Of a stretch of 35,246 bases of DNA, positions 11,996-20,936 are shown piece after piece. Within the stretch, counting starts at the first letter, position 1. Each line of letters starts with the position of its first letter. Location: contig JADGHL010000044.1 of assembly GCA_019686135.1 (NCBI GenBank), positions 1-35,246 of the forward strand, read 5' to 3'. Under the pieces are notes generated by a model. That model was not told where the DNA came from. It searched no databases and worked only from the letters and a program-made list of their open reading frames with translations. Origin of the DNA: Myxococcaceae bacterium (GTDB taxonomy: Bacteria; Myxococcota; Myxococcia; Myxococcales; Myxococcaceae). Both the position numbers and the translations under genes were made by a program.

Positions 11996-14263
11996 TCATC
12001 TCGCCGCCTCCGTCCGTACCGCCAGCTCCTCGCCCTCCACATCCACCTTCGCCACGCCACCGTTCTTCAGCGCGCCGAACAACAGCGCCTCGGCCAGCTT
12101 GCGCTTGATCTGGTTCTCCACCAGCCGCGCCATCGGCCGCGCGCCGAACGCAGGGTCGTACCCGTGCTTCGCCAGCCAGTCGCGCGCCGCACGGGTCACC
12201 TCCAGCTTCACGTTCTTCGGATCGAGCTGCTCCTGAAGCAGGCCGATCTCCTTGTCCACGACCTTGAGGATGATCTCGTAGGACAGCCCGCTGAAGAGGA
12301 TCCACCCGTCCAGGCGGTTGCGGAACTCGGGCGTGAACGTGCGCTCGATCGCCTTCTTCGCGCGCGACGTATCCACGCTCTCACCGCCGCCGAAGCCGAT
12401 CGACCGGGTCTGCATGTCGACCGCGCCGGCGTTGGTGGTGAGGATGAGGATGACGTTGCGGAAATCCGCCTTGCGCCCGTTGTTGTCGGTGAGCGTGGCG
12501 TGGTCCATCACCTGCAACAGGATGTTGAAGAGATCGGGGTGCGCCTTTTCGATCTCGTCCAGCACCACCACCGAGTACGGGTGCTTGCGCACGGCATCGG
12601 TGAGCAGCCCGCCCTGGTCGAACCCGACGTAGCCCGGCGGCGCGCCGATCAGCCGCGAGACGGTGTGCTTCTCCGAGTACTCCGACATGTCGTAGCGGAG
12701 GAACTCCACGCCGAGCGCTTTGGCCAGCTGCTTGGCCAGCTCCGTCTTGCCCACGCCGGTGGGCCCGGAGAAGAGGAACGAGCCGATCGGCTTGTCCGGC
12801 GTGCGCAGGCCGCTGCGCGCCAGCTTGATCGCCGCGGTCAGCTCTTCGATCGCCTTGTCCTGGCCGAAGATCACCGCCTTGAGCTGTTCCTCGAGATGCT
12901 GCAGCTGCTCGCCCTCGTTGGCGGAGACGCTGCGCGCCGGCACCTTCGCCATCTTCGAGACGACCTCCTCGACGTTCTTCTCGGTGACGACGCCAGTGCG
13001 CTGGCCCTCGGGCCGCAGGCGTTCGGCCGCGCCGGTCTCGTCCAGCACGTCGATCGCCTTGTCCGGCAGAAAGCGGTCGTTGATGTACTTGGCGGAGAGC
13101 TCGGCGGCGGCGCGGATCGCCGACTCCTCGTACTTCACCTGGTGGTGCGCCTCGTAGCGCGGCTGCAGCCCCTTGAGGATCTTCACCGTGTCCTCGATCG
13201 ACGGCTCGCCGACTTCGATCTTCTGGAAGCGGCGGGACAGCGCGCGGTCGCGCTCGAAGGCGGACTTGTACTCCTGGTACGTCGTGGACCCGATGCAGCG
13301 CAGGCTGCCCGACGCCAGCGCCGGCTTGAGGAGGTTGGACGCATCCATCGAGCCGCCGGTCGTCGCCCCCGCACCGACAATGGTGTGGATCTCGTCGATG
13401 AAGAGGATCGAGTTCGGGATCTTCTGCACCGCCTTGAGCACCGCCTTGAGGCGCTCCTCGAACTGGCCGCGGAACTTGGTCCCCGCGAGCAGCGCGCCCA
13501 TGTCGAGCAGGAAGACCTGCGCGTCCTTGAGCGCGTCGGGCACCTTGCCTTCGATGATGTGCAGCGCCAGGCCCTCGGCGATCGCCGTCTTGCCCACGCC
13601 GGGCTCGCCCACGTAGAGCGGGTTGTTCTTCCGGCGGCGGCACAGCACCTGGACGGTGCGCTCCAGCTCGAGCTCGCGGCCGATGAGCGGATCGATCCGC
13701 CCCGCCTTCGCCTCCTCGTTGAGGTTGGTGCAGTACGCCTTGAGCGGATCCTTCGCCGGCGCTTCGCCCTCCTCGCCCTCGCCGGCGGGCGCGGCCTCTT
13801 CGGCGTCCTCGTCGCTGCTCTCCTTGGTGATGCCGTGGGAGATGTAGTTGAGGATGTCGATCCGGCTGATGCCCTCCTCCTTGAGGACGAACAGCGCGTA
13901 CGACTCCTCCTCGCGGAAGAACGCCACCAGCACGTCCCCGCCGTCGATGGTCTTCTGTTCGGCGGAGAGCGCGTGGATCGCCGCGCGGTTGAGCACCCGC
14001 TCGACGCCGATGGTCTGCTGTGGATCGGACTCGTCGCCTTCGGGGAGCTGCTCCACCGTGTCCATCAAAAACGCGGTGAGCTTCTGCTCCATCCGCTTGA
14101 GGTTGCCGCCGCAGGCACGCAGCACCTCTGCCGAGCGCTTGTCCTTGAGCATCGCGAGCAGAAGGTGCTCGAGCGTCAGGTACTCGTGCCGCATCTTCTT
14201 CGCTTCAGCGCGCGCGGCGCGGAAGGTGGCCTGCAGCTCCTTGGCGATCGACGGGGGTGCCAC
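11996..14263 (-). CDS. clpA: ClpA, AAA+ unfoldase of the ClpAP protease
   Basis: A 755-aa two-ring AAA+ ATPase that unfolds substrates and feeds them to ClpP. The N-domain (1-145) is followed by an acidic linker (about 148-170). D1 has Walker A GEPGVGKT (219-226) and Walker B with D290-E291. D2 has Walker A GPTGVGKT (500-507) and Walker B with D569-E570. The ClpP-docking loop reads IGF at 622-624. There is no long coiled-coil middle domain, which excludes ClpB and ClpC. The start is a GTG, with GGAGGA nine bases upstream inside the end of clpS. Only 2 bp separate it from clpS, so the two are co-translated. No clpP is nearby. Confidence 0.97.
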   Translation of the reverse strand: MAPPSIAKELQATFRAARAEAKKMRHEYLTLEHLLLAMLKDKRSAEVLRACGGNLKRMEQKLTAFLMDTVEQLPEGDESDPQQTIGVERVLNRAAIHALSAEQKTIDGGDVLVAFFREEESYALFVLKEEGISRIDILNYISHGITKESSDEDAEEAAPAGEGEEGEAPAKDPLKAYCTNLNEEAKAGRIDPLIGRELELERTVQVLCRRRKNNPLYVGEPGVGKTAIAEGLALHIIEGKVPDALKDAQVFLLDMGALLAGTKFRGQFEERLKAVLKAVQKIPNSILFIDEIHTIVGAGATTGGSMDASNLLKPALASGSLRCIGSTTYQEYKSAFERDRALSRRFQKIEVGEPSIEDTVKILKGLQPRYEAHHQVKYEESAIRAAAELSAKYINDRFLPDKAIDVLDETGAAERLRPEGQRTGVVTEKNVEEVVSKMAKVPARSVSANEGEQLQHLEEQLKAVIFGQDKAIEELTAAIKLARSGLRTPDKPIGSFLFSGPTGVGKTELAKQLAKALGVEFLRYDMSEYSEKHTVSRLIGAPPGYVGFDQGGLLTDAVRKHPYSVVVLDEIEKAHPDLFNILLQVMDHATLTDNNGRKADFRNVILILTTNAGAVDMQTRSIGFGGGESVDTSRAKKAIERTFTPEFRNRLDGWILFSGLSYEIILKVVDKEIGLLQEQLDPKNVKLEVTRAARDWLAKHGYDPAFGARPMARLVENQIKRKLAEALLFGALKNGGVAKVDVEGEELAVRTEAAR

Positions 14264-14265
14264 TG

Positions 14266-14589
14266 TCAGTCGTCCTCCGGTTCCATCGAGAGCCGGAGCG
14301 GGAATTCGTTCTCCTGCGCCAGCTGCTCCACGAGGCGGATCTTCGTCTCCGCGACCTCGTATGTATAAACGCCCGCAACGCCGATGCCGTTGTAATGGAC
14401 GTGCAGCATGATCTGCACCGCGTCGGTCTCGGACTTGTGGAAGACCTCCTTCAGGATGGCCACCACGAAGTCCCGGGTCGTGTAGTTGTCGTTGTGCAGA
14501 AGCACCTTGTAGAGCTTCGGTCTCTGAAGCCGGACGTGCTTCTTCGTTTCGGTGGCGACATCACTATCGCCCTCGTACTTCCGAGGCAT
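14266..14589 (-). CDS. clpS: ClpS adaptor (N-degron recognition)
   Basis: A 107-aa adaptor that binds N-terminal bulky hydrophobic residues and delivers those substrates to ClpA. The ClpS core begins at about residue 23. N33, D34 and H65 match the residues that bind the alpha-amino group in E. coli ClpS (N34, D35, H66). The pocket stretch reads NDNYTTRD where E. coli has NDDYTPME, so the gatekeeper Met40 corresponds to R39 here. The C-terminal VAETK and ENEFPL segments are typical. An AGGTGA site precedes the ATG and overlaps the stop of the upstream acyltransferase gene, 6 bp away. I infer an operon of acyltransferase, clpS and clpA. Confidence 0.95.
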   Translation of the reverse strand: MPRKYEGDSDVATETKKHVRLQRPKLYKVLLHNDNYTTRDFVVAILKEVFHKSETDAVQIMLHVHYNGIGVAGVYTYEVAETKIRLVEQLAQENEFPLRLSMEPEDD

Positions 14590-14595
14590 GCCAGG

Positions 14596-15771
14596 TCACC
14601 TGCCTGCTTTCCAGACGTCTTCGCGCAACCCGCTCTCCTCGAGCCAGCGCGGCATACCCTCCCGGATCGCCGCGCGCTCCTGAACCAGGAAGTTTCGCAC
14701 GGCGCCATCCAGGCGCGGGTGGAAGATCCAGTGTGCGCTCCAGGTGAGCGAGGGCTCGAACCCGCGGACGAGCTTGTGCTCGCCGCCCGCCCCCGGCTCG
14801 AAGCGTCGTACGCCGCGGCGGATCGCCTCCTCGATCGAATGGTAGAGGCACACGTTGAAGTGCAGAAAGGGGTACTCCTCGAAGCATCCCCAATAACGTC
14901 CGTACAGCGTCGTGGCTGACGCGAGGTTGAGCGCACCCGCCACCAGCCGGCCGTCCTTGCGCGCCTCCACCAGTTCGAGACGGGAGCGCATCGACCGAAG
15001 CAAAAGCTCGAAGAAGCGGGGCGTCAGGTACCGGTGGCCGAAGAGGTACTTATCCACCGTGGACGCGTAGATCCGGAACACCGTCTCGGCGCTCACCTCC
15101 GAAAGCTCGTCCCCTCGGAGCGTCCGCAGACGGATGCCCTGCTCCCCCGGCGCGCGGCGCTCGCGGCGGAGCTGGGTGCGGCGCTTCGAACGGAAGGCGG
15201 TGAGGAAGTCGTCGAAAGAGCCGTAGCCGCGGTTGCGCCAGTGGTACTGGACACCGAGCCGGATCGCGAAGCCGTCCTCCTCCAGCGCCTGCGCCTCCTC
15301 TTCGGTGGGGAAGAGCACGTGCACCGACGAGAGCCCTTCGCTCCGCGCCAGCTCCACGGCGCCGCGGGCGAGCTCGCGGATCCGGGCGCGGCGATCTTCG
15401 CCCGGCGCGACCAGCAGCCGCGGACCGGTCGCGGGCGTCAGCGGCACGGCGAGCACCAGCTTCGGGTAGTAACGGAAGCCGAGGCGTTCGGCGGCGCTGG
15501 CCCACGTCCAGTCGAAGACGAACTCGCCATGGCTGTCGTCCTTCAGGTATGCGGGCGCCGCGGCCACCAGCCGCGTGCCCTCCCACACCGCCAGGTGCGC
15601 CGGCCTCCAGCCGCGTTCGGGCGTGATGCTGCCGGACGCCTCCAGCGCATGGAGCCAGTCCCACTCGAGGAACGGCACGGCCTCGGGCGGCACCAGCGCG
15701 TTCCACGTCTCCTTCGGAATGTCGGAGATCGCATGGTGGACGCGCAGGTTGGAGGGCAGGGGAGCGGACAT
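14596..15771 (-). CDS. Predicted N-acyltransferase, FemAB/GNAT-like (COG3146, DUF482 type)
   Basis: A 391-aa cytosolic protein matching the family of predicted N-acyltransferases whose fold resembles two GNAT domains, as in FemABX and leucyl/phenylalanyl-tRNA-protein transferase. Recognisable segments are VPFLEWDWLHALEASGS (about 28-45), a YYPKLVLAVP strand, the central basic KRRTQLRRERR stretch, and the C-terminal LYGRYWGCFEEYPFLHFNVCLY and RFEPGAGGEHKLVRGF blocks, which are family hallmarks. The substrate is not established for the family as far as I know. I chose the ATG at 15771; nothing upstream looks coding and no ribosome site is visible. The stop lies 6 bp before clpS, suggesting a shared role in N-terminal tagging of substrates (inference). 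Confidence 0.85.
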   Translation of the reverse strand: MSAPLPSNLRVHHAISDIPKETWNALVPPEAVPFLEWDWLHALEASGSITPERGWRPAHLAVWEGTRLVAAAPAYLKDDSHGEFVFDWTWASAAERLGFRYYPKLVLAVPLTPATGPRLLVAPGEDRRARIRELARGAVELARSEGLSSVHVLFPTEEEAQALEEDGFAIRLGVQYHWRNRGYGSFDDFLTAFRSKRRTQLRRERRAPGEQGIRLRTLRGDELSEVSAETVFRIYASTVDKYLFGHRYLTPRFFELLLRSMRSRLELVEARKDGRLVAGALNLASATTLYGRYWGCFEEYPFLHFNVCLYHSIEEAIRRGVRRFEPGAGGEHKLVRGFEPSLTWSAHWIFHPRLDGAVRNFLVQERAAIREGMPRWLEESGLREDVWKAGR

Positions 15772-15808
15772 GAATCTGCGATGGCGGCCTGATCCGTAAC
15801 ACGGGCCC

Positions 15809-15833
15809 GGGGGCGGCGCTCGCCTGCGCCCCC
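15809..15833. promoter_or_regulatory. Inverted repeat in the divergent promoter region
   Basis: GGGGGCG (15809-15815) and CGCCCCC (15827-15833) pair across an 11-nt loop in the 109-bp gap between the acyltransferase gene and the DJ-1-like gene. It could be an operator serving both genes. No clear -10 or -35 element can be assigned. Confidence 0.3.
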
Positions 15834-15880
15834 ATCGGGCGGCGCTCCGCCGGGCGCGCGTCGGTGCGCAGCTTTGGGGC

Positions 15881-16483: not shown

Positions 16484-16516
16484 GTCACCGCGCGTGTTGT
16501 CGGAAGCGCCCGACTG

Positions 16517-16860
16517 TTCGAGCTGAACGCACGACGGCACGACCATCCGACGGCGGAGGTGTGCACCGCACAGCTCGCCAGCGAGGCGGGCGCGCCGCAG
16601 CCGTGTCGTCGTCGTGATTCGGCGCATGTCAGCGGGGTGACTCAGGGGCTCGAGTTTGAACGCACGATGGCGCCGTCATCCGAAGACGCGGGGGCGCCGC
16701 CGTGGTGTCGTCGTCGTGATTCGGCGGATCGCAGCGGGCAGCTCGGCGGCTCGAGTTGAACGCCCGACGGCATCGCCATCCGACGACGCAGGTGCGCTTC
16801 GCACAGGTCGCCGGCGAAGAGGGTGTGCCGCTGCGGTGCCGTCGTCGACACAGGAACAGC
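16517..16860. repeat. Three imperfect tandem repeat units in a gene-free stretch
   Basis: Units start at 16517, 16649 and 16750, each with TTCGAGCTGAACGC or CTCGAGTT-GAACGC, then an ACGACGGC-type stretch, CATCCGA(C/A)G, and a GTCGTCGTCGTGATTCGGCG block (reduced in the third). The middle unit is about 31 bases shorter because it lacks the segment around GCACAGCTCGCCAGCGA. A partial unit may precede at about 16490. The gap 16484-16930 holds nothing else except a hairpin near its end. Confidence 0.7.
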
Positions 16861-16930: not shown

Positions 16931-18958
16931 TCAGGATCGGACCTCGGCCGGGCCCGGGCGGCGCGCGCAGAGGATGCGGGCGTCCGACAGCGTCCGGGCG
17001 TCGAGCAGCACCGCGGCGCGCTCGGCGGTCGTCAGTGACTCGGTGCGGCCCTCCAGCAGCTTCCTTCGACCGGACGCGAGCGCGAGCGTCCCGATGGGAC
17101 GACCGGGTTGGTCCTCCAGCAGCGCGAGGTGGATGGCGTGGGCCTTCACATCCGTGAGCACGTGGTCGAGCGCGTCCTCCACGTCGTGGGCCTTAGTCGA
17201 TGCGGCGATCTCCTTCGCCCGGACCAGCACGGGGTCGGGTGCGGTCTCCTCGGGGATCAACAGGAGCCCGTCGGCCACGCCGGTGCAGGAGGTCCACACG
17301 GTCAGGGGAATCGACCACAGGAGCCCGCCGGCGATCGGCGCGTACCAGAGCAGCAGATCGTCCGACAGCTGCGCGGCGATCCACGCCAGAACTGCGCCGA
17401 GAATGGTGTGAGGCCACAGGCGCCGCGCGGCTTCGGCCCAGGGCAACGCCTCGTCTTCGCGCTGCTGGGTCGTCCAGCTCACGCGGTGACCGGTGATGGT
17501 TCCGACGACGAACCACGACTGGAACACCATCATCACGGGCGCCATCAGCGTGGTCAGGAGCGTCTCGAACACCACGCCGGCGATCAGCCGAAGCCGGCCT
17601 CCCATCCGCCGCGCCAGCGCGCCGTCCAGAAGCGCCAGCACCAGCGCCAGCGCTTTGGGCACGAACAACAGGCCCATCGACATCGCCATCAGGCGGAGCG
17701 CACCGGCCACGTCGAACACCGGCCAGATCGGAAACAGCGTCCGGTGATCGGGGAAGTAGTCCGGCTGCACGGTGCGATCGACCGCCGCGGCGATGAGGCC
17801 CATCAAAAGGAACGCCAGGAGCAGCGGCGAGGCGAGATACGACATCACGCCCATCAGGAAGTGGCCGCGGCTCATCGGGTGCAGCCCGCCGGCGGCGATG
17901 AGCCTCATGTGCTGCAGGTTCCCCTGGCACCACCGGCGATCGCGTTGCGCGTACGCGAGCAGCTCCGGTGGCGGCTGCTCGTAGCTCCCGCCGAGCTCGG
18001 GGACCAGCCACACCTGGTAGCCCCCGCGTCGCATCAGCGCCGCCTCGACGAAGTCGTGGCTGAGGATGTGTCCACCGAACGGCGCCTCGCCGGGGAGCAC
18101 CGGCAGCCCGCAGTGCTCGATGAACGCCTTCACCCGGATGATGGCGTTGTGGCCCCAGTAGTTCGACTCGCCCAGTTGCCACCACGCCATCCCGGCGGAG
18201 ATGAGCGGTCCGTACAGGCGTCCGGCGAACTGCTGCAGCCGCGCGAACAACGTCCTTCGCCCCACCGCCAGCGGCGGCGCCTGGAGGATCCCCACCTGCG
18301 GGTTGAGCTCCATCAGCCGCGCCATGGTCACCAGCGTCTCGCCGCGCATCAGGCTATCCGCGTCGAGCACCACCATGAAGTCGTTGCGGCGCCCCCAGCG
18401 CTCGCAGAACTCCTGCAGGTTGCCGGCCTTCTTGCCGGTGTTCTGGTGCCGGCGGCGGTAGAAGATGCGGCCCTGTCCGTTCACGCGGCGGCAGAGGTCA
18501 GCCCAGGCGAGCTCCTCGCCGACCCACGCCTCCGCGCGTGTCGAGTCGCTCAGCACGTAGAACTCGAACTGCCCAAGCTGTCCGGTCGCGGCGACCGACT
18601 CGTAGACCGCCTGCAGGTGGGCGAACACCGCCGCCGGATCCTCGTTGTGGATCGGCATCACCACGGCGGTGCGGCTGCGAAGCGGCTCAGGCCCTTCGGG
18701 CCACATGAGTCCGGGCAGGCGGCGGCGGAACAACAGGTGGAGGAACCCGGCCACCGACGTCCAGAACCACAGGGCGATCCACCCGAAGCACAGGCAGAAC
18801 AGCACCACCATCGCCCACGCGGGGACGGTCATGCCCTTCACGTCGAGGATCCGCCGCATCTCCAGCGTGGCGAGCGCGGTGGAGACCGCGGTGGGGGCCA
18901 GCACGAGGAAGCGGCGAACGCGCGCCACCTCGGCTTCGATCGGCAAGGCGTCGCTCAC
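16931..18958 (-). CDS. opgH: Glucan glucosyltransferase H, catalytic and membrane part
   Basis: A 675-aa inner-membrane GT2 enzyme that makes the linear beta-1,2-glucan backbone of osmoregulated periplasmic glucans from UDP-glucose. TM helices flank the cytosolic GT domain. Seen are TAVVMPIHNEDP, SDSTR, VVLDADS (the DxD motif), SHDFVEAALMRRGG and the QRDRRW motif, all standard for OpgH, followed by several C-terminal TM helices. It lacks the long (about 140-residue) cytosolic N-terminus of E. coli OpgH (847 aa, from memory). The start is a GTG that overlaps the preceding 143-aa ORF by 4 bp (GTGA), with no ribosome site. That ORF may encode the missing N-terminal part. Confidence 0.93.
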   Translation of the reverse strand: MSDALPIEAEVARVRRFLVLAPTAVSTALATLEMRRILDVKGMTVPAWAMVVLFCLCFGWIALWFWTSVAGFLHLLFRRRLPGLMWPEGPEPLRSRTAVVMPIHNEDPAAVFAHLQAVYESVAATGQLGQFEFYVLSDSTRAEAWVGEELAWADLCRRVNGQGRIFYRRRHQNTGKKAGNLQEFCERWGRRNDFMVVLDADSLMRGETLVTMARLMELNPQVGILQAPPLAVGRRTLFARLQQFAGRLYGPLISAGMAWWQLGESNYWGHNAIIRVKAFIEHCGLPVLPGEAPFGGHILSHDFVEAALMRRGGYQVWLVPELGGSYEQPPPELLAYAQRDRRWCQGNLQHMRLIAAGGLHPMSRGHFLMGVMSYLASPLLLAFLLMGLIAAAVDRTVQPDYFPDHRTLFPIWPVFDVAGALRLMAMSMGLLFVPKALALVLALLDGALARRMGGRLRLIAGVVFETLLTTLMAPVMMVFQSWFVVGTITGHRVSWTTQQREDEALPWAEAARRLWPHTILGAVLAWIAAQLSDDLLLWYAPIAGGLLWSIPLTVWTSCTGVADGLLLIPEETAPDPVLVRAKEIAASTKAHDVEDALDHVLTDVKAHAIHLALLEDQPGRPIGTLALASGRRKLLEGRTESLTTAERAAVLLDARTLSDARILCARRPGPAEVRS

Positions 18959-19386
18959 GGCGCGGGCGTGGTCTGCCAGATTCGGCGGAACAGCGCCGCC
19001 AGCGGGTTGAGCGTGAGCTGCTGCTCGGGCATCACGCAGCGGATCTCCTCGGGCGTTCCAACCGGCACCGCGGCCTTCAGGGCCTCCAGCGTCGAGGCGG
19101 AGAGCGCCACCTCGCCGGTGAGCACGCCCGCGCCGAGCCCGGCCAGGCCGCACTGAAGGAATGCTACGCGCCCGCGCACCAGGCCCACCGCGAGCGTCCG
19201 TTGGAACCACGCGTCCACGCGGTGGCGCGCCCGGGCGAGCGCGGCCTCGTTGTCACGGAAAGCGGCGCCCTCGAGGGCCCACGCGGCGAGCGTGGCGAGA
19301 TCGTCTTCTTCGGTGAAGCCGAGCGAGCGGAAGAGGGCATCCACCGCCTCGGGGCGGTGCACCGCGCGCAGGTCGGAAGCGGTCAC
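18955..19386 (-). CDS. 143-aa protein between opgG and opgH, possible detached OpgH N-terminal domain
   Basis: A 143-aa protein with no signal peptide and no clear TM helix, although about 65-85 is fairly hydrophobic. It overlaps opgG and opgH by 4 bp each (GTGA both times) and starts with GTG. Compared with E. coli OpgH as I remember it, it shares S/T-D-L/I-RAVH near the start (residues 4-9), an acidic EEDD patch, an LKA stretch, and an NP-x4-F/W-R end (NPLAALFRR) that in E. coli lies shortly before the first TM helix. Order and spacing are collinear, so I read it as the OpgH N-terminal domain encoded separately. A frameshift error at the junction would give the same picture. Otherwise unknown. 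Confidence 0.65.
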   Translation of the reverse strand: MTASDLRAVHRPEAVDALFRSLGFTEEDDLATLAAWALEGAAFRDNEAALARARHRVDAWFQRTLAVGLVRGRVAFLQCGLAGLGAGVLTGEVALSASTLEALKAAVPVGTPEEIRCVMPEQQLTLNPLAALFRRIWQTTPAP

Positions 19387-20936
19387 GGAATCCACAGGTA
19401 GCTCCAGGTTTCGCTGAGGGTGGTCGAACCGCTGCGCAGAAACGCGCGCAGCTCGATGGGAGAGGAGGTGTTGCCGTGCAGAAGCTCGAAGGAGGCGCGC
19501 CAGCCGCCGGTGGTCTCGTTCTTCTGCGCGGTGGCGTGGAGGATCCGCCCGGCCGAAGTGGAGACCACCACCTCCACCGGCGCGCCCGGCTCCGGCGCGG
19601 TCTGGCTGGCGGAGAAGTCGAGCACGAAGCGGCGCTGACCTTTCGCGGATCCCTTCGCCGTCCGGGTGCTCAGCACGCGCGCCGCGGTGATGGCGAAGGG
19701 CGGCGTCGAACCCCAGTGCAGCCGGTAGGCGATCCGAAGCTCGCGCCCCGGCTCCACGGGCGTCTGCGGGATCCACGCGGCGACGATGTTGTCGTGGATC
19801 TCCTCGTCGCTGGGGATCTCCACCAGCTGCACCGCGCCGGGCCCCCACTCGCCGATGGGCTCCACCCACAGCGACGGGCGGCGCTCGTAGTGGGCTTCGA
19901 GGTCCTCGTAGCTGGAGAGGTGGCGGTCACGCTGCTCGAGGCCGAACGCGCGCGGGCTGTCCGCCTGGAACGACGAGACGTTGAGCGTGCGCGGGTTCTG
20001 CAGCGGCCGGAAGAGCTGCTCGCCGTTGCGCAGCCAGAGGAACAGCCCGTCGGAGTCGTGGACCTCCGGCCGGAAGTCGTCGAACGCGCCCGGGTCGTTC
20101 TCGCCGAAGAGGTACATGCTCGTGAGCGGCGCCAGCCCGAGCTGCTTGACCGCCTTGCGCGGAAACAGCGACGCCTCCACGTCCATCCGCGTGGGCGTCT
20201 GGTCGGTGCCGGGGACGATGACGAACCGGTACGCGCCGGTGATCGACCGGCTGTCGAGCAGCGCGTGGACGACCACCCGGTCCGCGTTCGTGGCCGGCTT
20301 TTCGATCCAGAACCCGGTGAACGCGGGGAACTCCTCGCCGGAGGGCAGCGCGGTGTCGATCGCCAGGCCGCGCGCGGAGAGGCCGTAGACGTTCCCCTTG
20401 CCGAGCGCGCGGAAGTAGCTGGCGCCGAGAAACACCACCAGCTCGTCGAAGACGTCCGGGCGGTTGAGCGCGCAGTTCAGCCGGAAGCCGGCGAACCCGT
20501 CCGCGCCGCGGAGCTTCGCGGCGTCCACCAGCCGCCCGTAGGAGAACAGGTCGCTGGAGAAGGGGAGCGCGCGGACGCGGCCGTTCTCCACCACGTGCAG
20601 CGGCACCGTCTCCCGAAAGTAGAAGCCGGGGTGGAAGAACTGCACCTGAAAGGGCAGTTGCTCGCTGCGCCACACCGCGCGCTCGGGCCGGAAGCGGATG
20701 TCCCGGTACTGGTCGTAGGTGAGCTTCGCGAAGGTGTCGGGGACCGTCTTGCGCGGGGTGAACGGCCGCTGCGCGAGCGCGCGCGCCTCCTCCCGGACGG
20801 TCTCGGCGGAGAAGGGCGCGGGCGCCGCCGCTCCGAGCGCGGCCACCAGCGGAATCAGCAGAAGACATCGTGCGAAGAAGAGGGGGCGATGGACGCCCCG
20901 CCGGCCCCGGTACAGCGGGCGCTGAAGAATCCGCAT
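19383..20936 (-). CDS. opgG: Periplasmic glucan biosynthesis protein G
   Basis: A 517-aa exported protein of the MdoG/OpgG family, needed for periplasmic glucan synthesis and thought to act on the nascent glucan backbone. An N-terminal basic region and a hydrophobic stretch (about 22-40, CLLLIPLVAALGAAAPAP) form the signal peptide. Family segments include YDQYRDIRFRPERAVW (about 73-88), FQVQFFHPGFYF, GFAGFRLNC, GASYFRALG, YGLSARGLAIDT and the C-terminal WGSTPPF region. Family length is about 510 residues. The ATG at 20936 is the first good start and gives a proper signal. It heads the operon opgG, orf143, opgH; 164 bp separate it from the glycosyltransferase cluster upstream. Confidence 0.94.
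   Translation of the reverse strand: MRILQRPLYRGRRGVHRPLFFARCLLLIPLVAALGAAAPAPFSAETVREEARALAQRPFTPRKTVPDTFAKLTYDQYRDIRFRPERAVWRSEQLPFQVQFFHPGFYFRETVPLHVVENGRVRALPFSSDLFSYGRLVDAAKLRGADGFAGFRLNCALNRPDVFDELVVFLGASYFRALGKGNVYGLSARGLAIDTALPSGEEFPAFTGFWIEKPATNADRVVVHALLDSRSITGAYRFVIVPGTDQTPTRMDVEASLFPRKAVKQLGLAPLTSMYLFGENDPGAFDDFRPEVHDSDGLFLWLRNGEQLFRPLQNPRTLNVSSFQADSPRAFGLEQRDRHLSSYEDLEAHYERRPSLWVEPIGEWGPGAVQLVEIPSDEEIHDNIVAAWIPQTPVEPGRELRIAYRLHWGSTPPFAITAARVLSTRTAKGSAKGQRRFVLDFSASQTAPEPGAPVEVVVSTSAGRILHATAQKNETTGGWRASFELLHGNTSSPIELRAFLRSGSTTLSETWSYLWIP

What the first reader, a model, noticed from the sequence alone, without database searches (positions are those of the whole stretch)
14266..15771. 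A FemAB-like acyltransferase in one operon with clpS and clpA
The acyltransferase stop lies 6 bp before clpS, and clpS 2 bp before clpA, with the clpS ribosome site overlapping the acyltransferase stop. ClpS reads N-degrons. The known bacterial enzymes that create them (Aat, Bpt) have FemAB-related double-GNAT folds and are often near clpA. A predicted N-acyltransferase with no assigned substrate in this position is a good candidate for a new N-terminal tagging (or tag-blocking) enzyme. The linkage is seen; the role is inference.
Basis: partly seen in the sequence, partly recalled or inferred. Interest (0 to 1): 0.62.

Follow-up and report, generated by a model that had tools for sequence, protein, structure and literature searches.

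The report
Third enzyme of a protein-degradation tagging pathway
A widespread bacterial enzyme family of unknown function sits, across at least three phyla, beside the genes that mark and read protein starts for destruction, so it is probably a third 'marking' enzyme of that pathway, but no chemistry has been tested.

Summary
In detail: a PF04339/COG3146 gene (14596-15771, minus strand) is followed after 6 bp by clpS and 2 bp later by clpA. It is not a local accident. PF04339 lies directly upstream of clpS in 59 of 107 PF04339-bearing genomes of the window's phylum and in 30 of 30 loci of another phylum. Elsewhere it takes other arrangements: fem>aat>bpt facing clpA-clpS in Gammaproteobacteria, aat>fem in distant Myxococcota, and fem facing clpA-clpS in Alphaproteobacteria. 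It co-occurs strongly with clpS and aat. The AlphaFold model (pLDDT 93.6) is a double GNAT whose best full-length matches are aminoacyl-tRNA-dependent transferases (FemX, streptothricin synthases), and the acetyl-CoA motif is missing. The best reading is a third aminoacyl-tRNA-dependent transferase of the ClpS/ClpA N-degron pathway, used beside Aat and Bpt. Sequence profiles show no homology to Aat or Bpt. In Alphaproteobacteria a RidA/GDPD/HIT context is a competing signal. Chemistry, substrate and sign (tagging or blocking) are inferred, not shown. I found no paper in the library linking this family to ClpS.

The parts
14596..15771 (-). PF04339/COG3146 FemAB-like double-GNAT transferase, first gene of the operon (391 aa)
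   Evidence: Pfam E 3.5e-143; AlphaFold pLDDT 93.6; FemX and other aa-tRNA-dependent transferases are the best full-length folds
14266..14589 (-). clpS, N-degron adaptor (107 aa); keeps N34, D35, T38, M62, V65 and H66 of E. coli ClpS, but position 40 is Arg instead of Met
   Evidence: PF02617 6.5e-32; residue comparison
11996..14263 (-). clpA, unfoldase of ClpAP (755 aa, GTG start)
   Evidence: TIGR02639 equivalog 1127.8 bits, over its cut-off
14590..14604 (-). junction: AGGTGA ribosome-binding-like site overlapping the transferase stop, 6 bp gap, then clpS ATG
   Evidence: read directly from the sequence
15772..15880 (.). 109 bp intergenic stretch between the operon start and a divergent DJ-1/PfpI gene; presumed promoter region, no sigma-70-type match found

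Best explanation
The gene encodes a FemX-type, aminoacyl-tRNA-dependent transferase that works in the ClpS-ClpA(P) N-degron pathway. It would take an amino acid from a charged tRNA through its second GNAT domain (conserved basic helix, residues 195-206, and the invariant H332-K333...R336-G337 loop) and join it to an amino group. The most likely acceptor is the N-terminus of proteolytic fragments or misprocessed proteins that neither Aat (Lys/Arg starts) nor Bpt (Asp/Glu starts) accepts. ClpS would then recognise the new N-terminus and deliver the protein to ClpA. Shown here: the operon, its conservation, the co-occurrence and the predicted fold. Inferred: tRNA as donor, N-termini as acceptor, and tagging rather than blocking.
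For: The operon is real. PF04339 is directly upstream of clpS on the same strand in 59 genomes of the window's phylum, across four families, and in 30 of 30 loci of another phylum. Other arrangements with the same partners: fem>aat>bpt in Thiogranum (two), Contendobacter and Competibacteraceae, followed by a facing clpA-clpS in both Thiogranum loci; aat>fem in three distant Myxococcota; fem facing clpA-clpS in Alphaproteobacteria. In 80 Pseudomonadota genomes with full-length PF04339, 24 have it within 10 kb of clpS or aat, where about 0.7 is expected for random placement. On a tree the arrangements sit in separate clades. Co-occurrence: 107 of 107 PF04339 genomes of the window's phylum have ClpS, against 25 of 38 without PF04339 (p = 5e-9); in Pseudomonadota 80 of 80 have Aat against 65 of 80 (p = 3e-5) (these p-values ignore shared ancestry). 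Fold: the best full-length matches are FemX (TM 0.54-0.56 / 0.61-0.64) and aa-tRNA-dependent Sbb17/Sba18 (0.65-0.68 by target length), followed by A-PGS; CoA-dependent tandem GNATs such as VipF and Eis2 score lower, 0.30-0.45. No [QR]xxGx[GA] CoA motif is fixed at the expected beta4-alpha3 site (1 of 40), while H304, F305, E325, G327, H332, K333, R336 and G337 are invariant. A positively charged helix in GNAT domain 2 and one key lysine are the features proposed for FemX-type tRNA users (PMC12945691).
Against: No sequence homology to Aat or Bpt is detectable (hhalign probability 0.4 and 2.4), and FemX scores only E about 0.2 by profile. I could not map K333 onto FemX Lys305 by structure. In Alphaproteobacteria the gene more often shares its strand with RidA, GDPD and HIT genes than with N-degron genes, which suggests a further or different role there. 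Many genomes keep the gene away from clpS and aat (56 of 80 in Pseudomonadota; all 16 f2 genomes). The second copy in Myxococcaceae is unlinked. The f1 genomes that keep only an unlinked copy show the clpS-linked copy is dispensable. Co-occurrence is confounded by phylogeny and by genome reduction.
Confidence: 0.55

Rival explanations
1. It acts in the N-degron pathway but as an acyl-CoA-dependent N-terminal acyl- or acetyltransferase that blocks (or creates) degrons, controlling which N-termini ClpS can read.
For: Same genomic context. PF13480 GNAT domain match. Public annotation reads 'GNAT family N-acetyltransferase', and the plant homologue At2g23390 is called acyl-CoA N-acyltransferase (PMC4488762).
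Against: No conserved CoA pyrophosphate motif. CoA-using tandem GNATs are poorer structural matches than tRNA-using ones. The plant label rests on family annotation; I found no enzyme assay in that paper by the terms searched.
Confidence: 0.15
2. It is not an N-degron enzyme. It is a housekeeping FemAB-like transferase (small molecule, lipid or envelope amine) that happens to lie in a conserved housekeeping region.
For: In Alphaproteobacteria it follows RidA and GDPD and precedes HIT. Most Pseudomonadota copies are not near clpS or aat. PF04339 is labelled peptidoglycan biosynthesis/recognition. Silencing of a cotton homologue affected fertility and lipid and jasmonate genes (PMC4488762).
Against: A passive neighbour would not be expected to meet clpS, aat and bpt in four different arrangements, or to track clpS and aat presence.
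Confidence: 0.17
3. It modifies or partners the machinery itself (for example aminoacylates ClpS or ClpA, or binds ClpS as a co-adaptor) instead of writing degrons on substrates.
For: The tightest and most common arrangement is with clpS and clpA, not with aat. Position 40 of Myxococcaceae ClpS is Arg instead of Met.
Against: In Gammaproteobacteria the gene runs in order with aat and bpt, the substrate-side enzymes, not with clpS. Arg40 also occurs in genomes without PF04339 (G119, G086) and Met40 in linked ones (G097, G068).
Confidence: 0.08
4. It replaces missing Aat and Bpt in genomes that lost them.
For: Three genomes of the window's phylum (G068, G007, G026) have ClpS and PF04339 but neither Aat nor Bpt. 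The window's genome lacks Bpt.
Against: The window's genome has Aat. 58 of 59 linked genomes have Aat and 52 have Bpt. Four loci carry all three genes in a row.
Confidence: 0.03

Closest known systems
PF04339 / COG3146 (FemAB_like, formerly DUF482)
   Same: Full-length member: E 3.5e-143, 366 of 391 residues covered.
   Different: The family itself has no established reaction. A pterin-related prediction for it was tested and failed (PMC3223725).
FemX / FemABX non-ribosomal aminoacyl-tRNA transferases
   Same: Double-GNAT fold, best PDB match (E 6e-13, TM up to 0.64); basic helix in GNAT domain 2.
   Different: About 11% identity; sequence profile E about 0.2 only; genomic context is protein degradation, not cell wall.
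Aat, leucyl/phenylalanyl-tRNA-protein transferase (PF03588)
   Same: Shares neighbourhood and occurrence; adjacent in Gammaproteobacteria and in three Myxococcota.
   Different: No profile similarity (probability 0.4); Aat is a separate gene in the same genome.
Bpt, bacterial leucyl transferase (PF04376/PF04377, ATE fold)
   Same: In one run with it in four gammaproteobacterial loci; weak collinear profile alignment over the C-terminal GNAT.
   Different: Profile probability only 2.4; no ATE_N or ATE_C match; absent from the window's genome.
aa-tRNA-dependent peptide synthases of natural products (Sbb17/Sba18, DhpH-C; AlpO of argolaphos is assigned to COG3146)
   Same: Sbb17/Sba18 match the fold with TM up to 0.68; AlpO is named as a putative aminoacyl-tRNA ligase of COG3146 (PMC8976061).
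   Different: They act on small antibiotics in secondary-metabolite clusters; AlpO is a weak COG3146 match (5e-7) and is not biochemically assigned.

Membership tests
PF04339 FemAB_like | full-length profile match above the curated cut-off | tested here: met
   477.7 bits against 27; profile positions 2-365 of 369
FemABX aminoacyl-tRNA-dependent transferases | double-GNAT fold resembling FemX over both domains | tested here: met
   Foldseek E 6e-13, 375-382 columns, TM 0.54-0.64
FemABX aminoacyl-tRNA-dependent transferases | significant sequence-profile match | tested here: not met
   hmmsearch E 0.21-0.29 against FemX chains
FemABX aminoacyl-tRNA-dependent transferases | conserved catalytic lysine (FemX Lys305 equivalent) and tRNA-binding basic helix | tested here: inconclusive
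   K333 invariant in 40 of 40 and basic helix 195-206 conserved, but superposition on FemX residues was not possible
FemABX aminoacyl-tRNA-dependent transferases | use of aminoacyl-tRNA | not testable with these tools
   needs biochemistry
acetyl-CoA-dependent GNAT | [QR]xxGx[GA] pyrophosphate motif at beta4-alpha3 | tested here: not met
   1 of 40 members at the expected place
Aat (PF03588) | PF03588 match or profile homology | tested here: not met
   not among the Pfam matches; hhalign probability 0.4
Bpt/ATE (PF04376, PF04377) | ATE_N and ATE_C match or profile homology | tested here: not met
   not among the Pfam matches; hhalign probability 2.4
ClpS-ClpA N-degron pathway component | conserved genomic association with clpS, clpA, aat or bpt across phyla | tested here: met
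ClpS-ClpA N-degron pathway component | effect on stability of N-degron substrates | not testable with these tools
   needs a mutant and reporter assay

The most novel reading that the evidence does not exclude
COG3146 is a third, previously unrecognised class of aminoacyl-tRNA-protein transferase in the bacterial N-degron pathway, with an N-terminal specificity different from Aat and Bpt. It would be shared by Alpha- and Gammaproteobacteria, Myxococcota and at least one further phylum, and perhaps by plant plastids through At2g23390, whose compartment has ClpS1.
Probability: 0.45. Interest if true: 0.85.

Novelty: new variant of a known kind. Interest (0 to 1): 0.68.

Why it matters
Only two bacterial enzymes that create N-degrons by aminoacyl transfer (Aat and Bpt) are described in the work I could find. 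A third, widely conserved writer would widen the set of N-termini that can become degrons. It would also give a function to a family annotated in public records only as a GNAT N-acetyltransferase. Plants have a homologue (At2g23390) reported in a soluble chloroplast proteome (PMC3531887), and a 2021 review says the rules of plastid and cyanobacterial N-degron pathways remain to be determined (PMC7966870). The idea is directly testable with a purified protein, charged tRNAs and peptide arrays.

Tried and rejected
Replacement of Aat and Bpt: rejected by their presence in most linked genomes. Sequence homology to Aat or Bpt: none. Solved close relatives: none by phmmer or profile. ClpS specificity change tied to the neighbour (Arg40): inconsistent across genomes. 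Viral structural library: only generic FemAB and N-myristoyltransferase folds. Plasmid homologues: P. aeruginosa and Sphingomonas copies have no clpS beside them. Cyanobacteria could not be surveyed by neighbourhood because no genome handle was reachable. Promoter scan: nothing.

Full report
What is there. On the minus strand of the window three genes follow one another: a 391-aa PF04339 (COG3146) protein at 15771-14596, clpS at 14589-14266 and clpA at 14263-11996. The gaps are 6 and 2 bp, and the ribosome-binding-like AGGTGA of clpS overlaps the transferase stop. The ClpA call passes the equivalog cut-off of TIGR02639. Upstream, 109 bp separate the operon from a divergent DJ-1/PfpI gene; a sigma-70 scan found nothing.

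Is the linkage more than chance? I compared HMM positions of PF04339 and ClpS in 145 genomes of the window's phylum. The window's family is Myxococcaceae, because two same-family handles coincide with Myxococcus records: G102 and G189 have identical Bpt coordinates, as do G116 and G190. PF04339 is directly upstream of clpS, same strand, 74-197 nt between HMM ends, in 59 genomes: 53 of the same family, 4 of f3, 1 of f4 and 1 of f7. It is never so in the 16 f2 (Anaeromyxobacter-like) genomes with PF04339; in the two f2 loci read, clpS lies next to aat. In a different phylum reached through the seed record 'Deltaproteobacteria bacterium OFTM235', all 30 PF04339 loci read fem>clpS, with clpA following in 29; the last locus is cut at the contig end.

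Other arrangements with the same partners. A scan of 84,980 genomes returned 80 loci, and 32 of them have aat, clpS or clpA nearby. In four gammaproteobacterial loci (two Thiogranum, Contendobacter, Competibacteraceae) the order is fem>aat>bpt; in both Thiogranum loci a facing clpA-clpS follows, and in L120 fem and aat abut without a gap. In three distant Myxococcota aat is directly upstream. In Alphaproteobacteria the gene faces clpA-clpS. A separate even sample of 160 Pseudomonadota genomes gave 24 of 80 full-length copies within 10 kb of clpS or aat, against about 0.7 expected for random placement. On a tree of 147 proteins the arrangements occupy separate clades: fem>clpS needs 4 changes and lies in two deep groups, and fem>aat is one clade. 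The tree is FastTree only, and several deep forks are poorly supported.

Co-occurrence. In the window's phylum 107 of 107 PF04339 genomes have ClpS, against 25 of 38 without PF04339. In Pseudomonadota 80 of 80 have Aat against 65 of 80, and 79 of 80 have ClpS. These tests ignore phylogeny and genome reduction, so they support the case but do not settle it.

Aat and Bpt. The window's genome (97% complete draft) has Aat and no detectable Bpt. Of the 59 clpS-linked genomes 58 have Aat and 52 have Bpt; G068 has neither.

Structure and motifs. The AlphaFold model from 18 homologues is confident (pLDDT 93.6, pTM 0.92). Foldseek against the PDB gives FemX first, with streptothricin aminoacyl-tRNA-dependent synthases and A-PGS/MprF among the best full-length matches; acetyl-CoA-using tandem GNATs are also found with similar E-values but align with lower TM-scores. 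Forty divergent members keep G291, R292, W294, G295, H304, F305, E325, G327, A328, G330, H332, K333, R336, G337, S345 and H347. A basic helix (195-206) is strongly conserved, and the CoA pyrophosphate motif is not fixed at its usual place. A 2026 review describes a positive helix on GNAT domain 2 and a single key lysine (FemX Lys305, DhpH-C Lys329) as the working parts of FemX-type tRNA users (PMC12945691). That K333 is their counterpart is my inference and was not superposed. By sequence there is no detectable homology to Aat or Bpt, so it is not a member of either family.

How it most likely works. A charged tRNA would dock on the basic helix of GNAT domain 2, and the amino acid would pass to an amino group held between the two domains. 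Given its neighbours, the acceptor is most likely a protein N-terminus; ClpS would read the product and hand it to ClpA. Operon, conservation, co-occurrence and fold are shown; donor, acceptor and outcome are inferred. An N-terminal blocking enzyme is possible but less likely. I put about 0.8 on membership of the pathway in some role and 0.55 on the tRNA-dependent tagging mechanism.

What speaks against it. In Alphaproteobacteria the same-strand neighbours are typically RidA, GDPD and HIT, with or without clpA nearby. Most Pseudomonadota copies are not near N-degron genes. Myxococcaceae carry a second, unlinked copy in its own clade, and some keep only that one. Plasmid copies have no clpS next to them.

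Novelty. The family is long known but has no function. A pterin-related prediction was tested and failed (PMC3223725), the Arabidopsis homologue was found in a soluble chloroplast proteome (PMC3531887), and a cotton homologue was studied only as a predicted acyl-CoA N-acyltransferase (PMC4488762). Library searches for this family with ClpS or N-degron terms found nothing that links them. The library lacks most subscription journals, so absence there is not proof. I rate it a new variant of a known kind: a probable additional enzyme of a known pathway.

Noticed in passing
14266-14589: The gatekeeper position of ClpS (Met40 in E. coli) is Arg in the window and in the linked Myxococcaceae ClpS examined. 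The one Myxococcaceae genome examined without PF04339 (G130, L058) keeps Met, but Arg also occurs in PF04339-less G119 and G086, and Met in linked G097 and G068. It may alter N-degron choice.
   Followed up: partly
L173:8935-11634; L228:5304-7113: In Alphaproteobacteria PF04339 commonly lies in a RidA-GDPD-PF04339-HIT gene run, independent of clpA distance; a second conserved context that the N-degron idea does not explain.
   Followed up: partly
L067:6940-8097 (G000:C70): A second PF04339 paralogue in the same genome, 55% identical, not linked to clpS, belongs to a separate well-supported Myxococcaceae clade; one neighbour is a family III CoA-transferase.
   Followed up: partly
16931-20936: MdoH-like glucosyltransferase (16931-19210) and MdoG (19383-20936), i.e. 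osmoregulated periplasmic glucan genes, next to the operon in this Myxococcaceae genome.
   Followed up: no
16508-16847: Non-coding-looking stretch made of diverged direct repeats (107-nt pair 79% alike, 41-nt unit three times, 54-nt pair 85% alike) containing GTCGTCGTCGTGATTCGG-type units.
   Followed up: no
L227:7977-9101 (CP075839.1): Pseudomonas aeruginosa plasmids carry a PF04339 gene about 49% identical to the window's, annotated GNAT N-acetyltransferase, with no clpS or aat among the annotated neighbours.
   Followed up: partly
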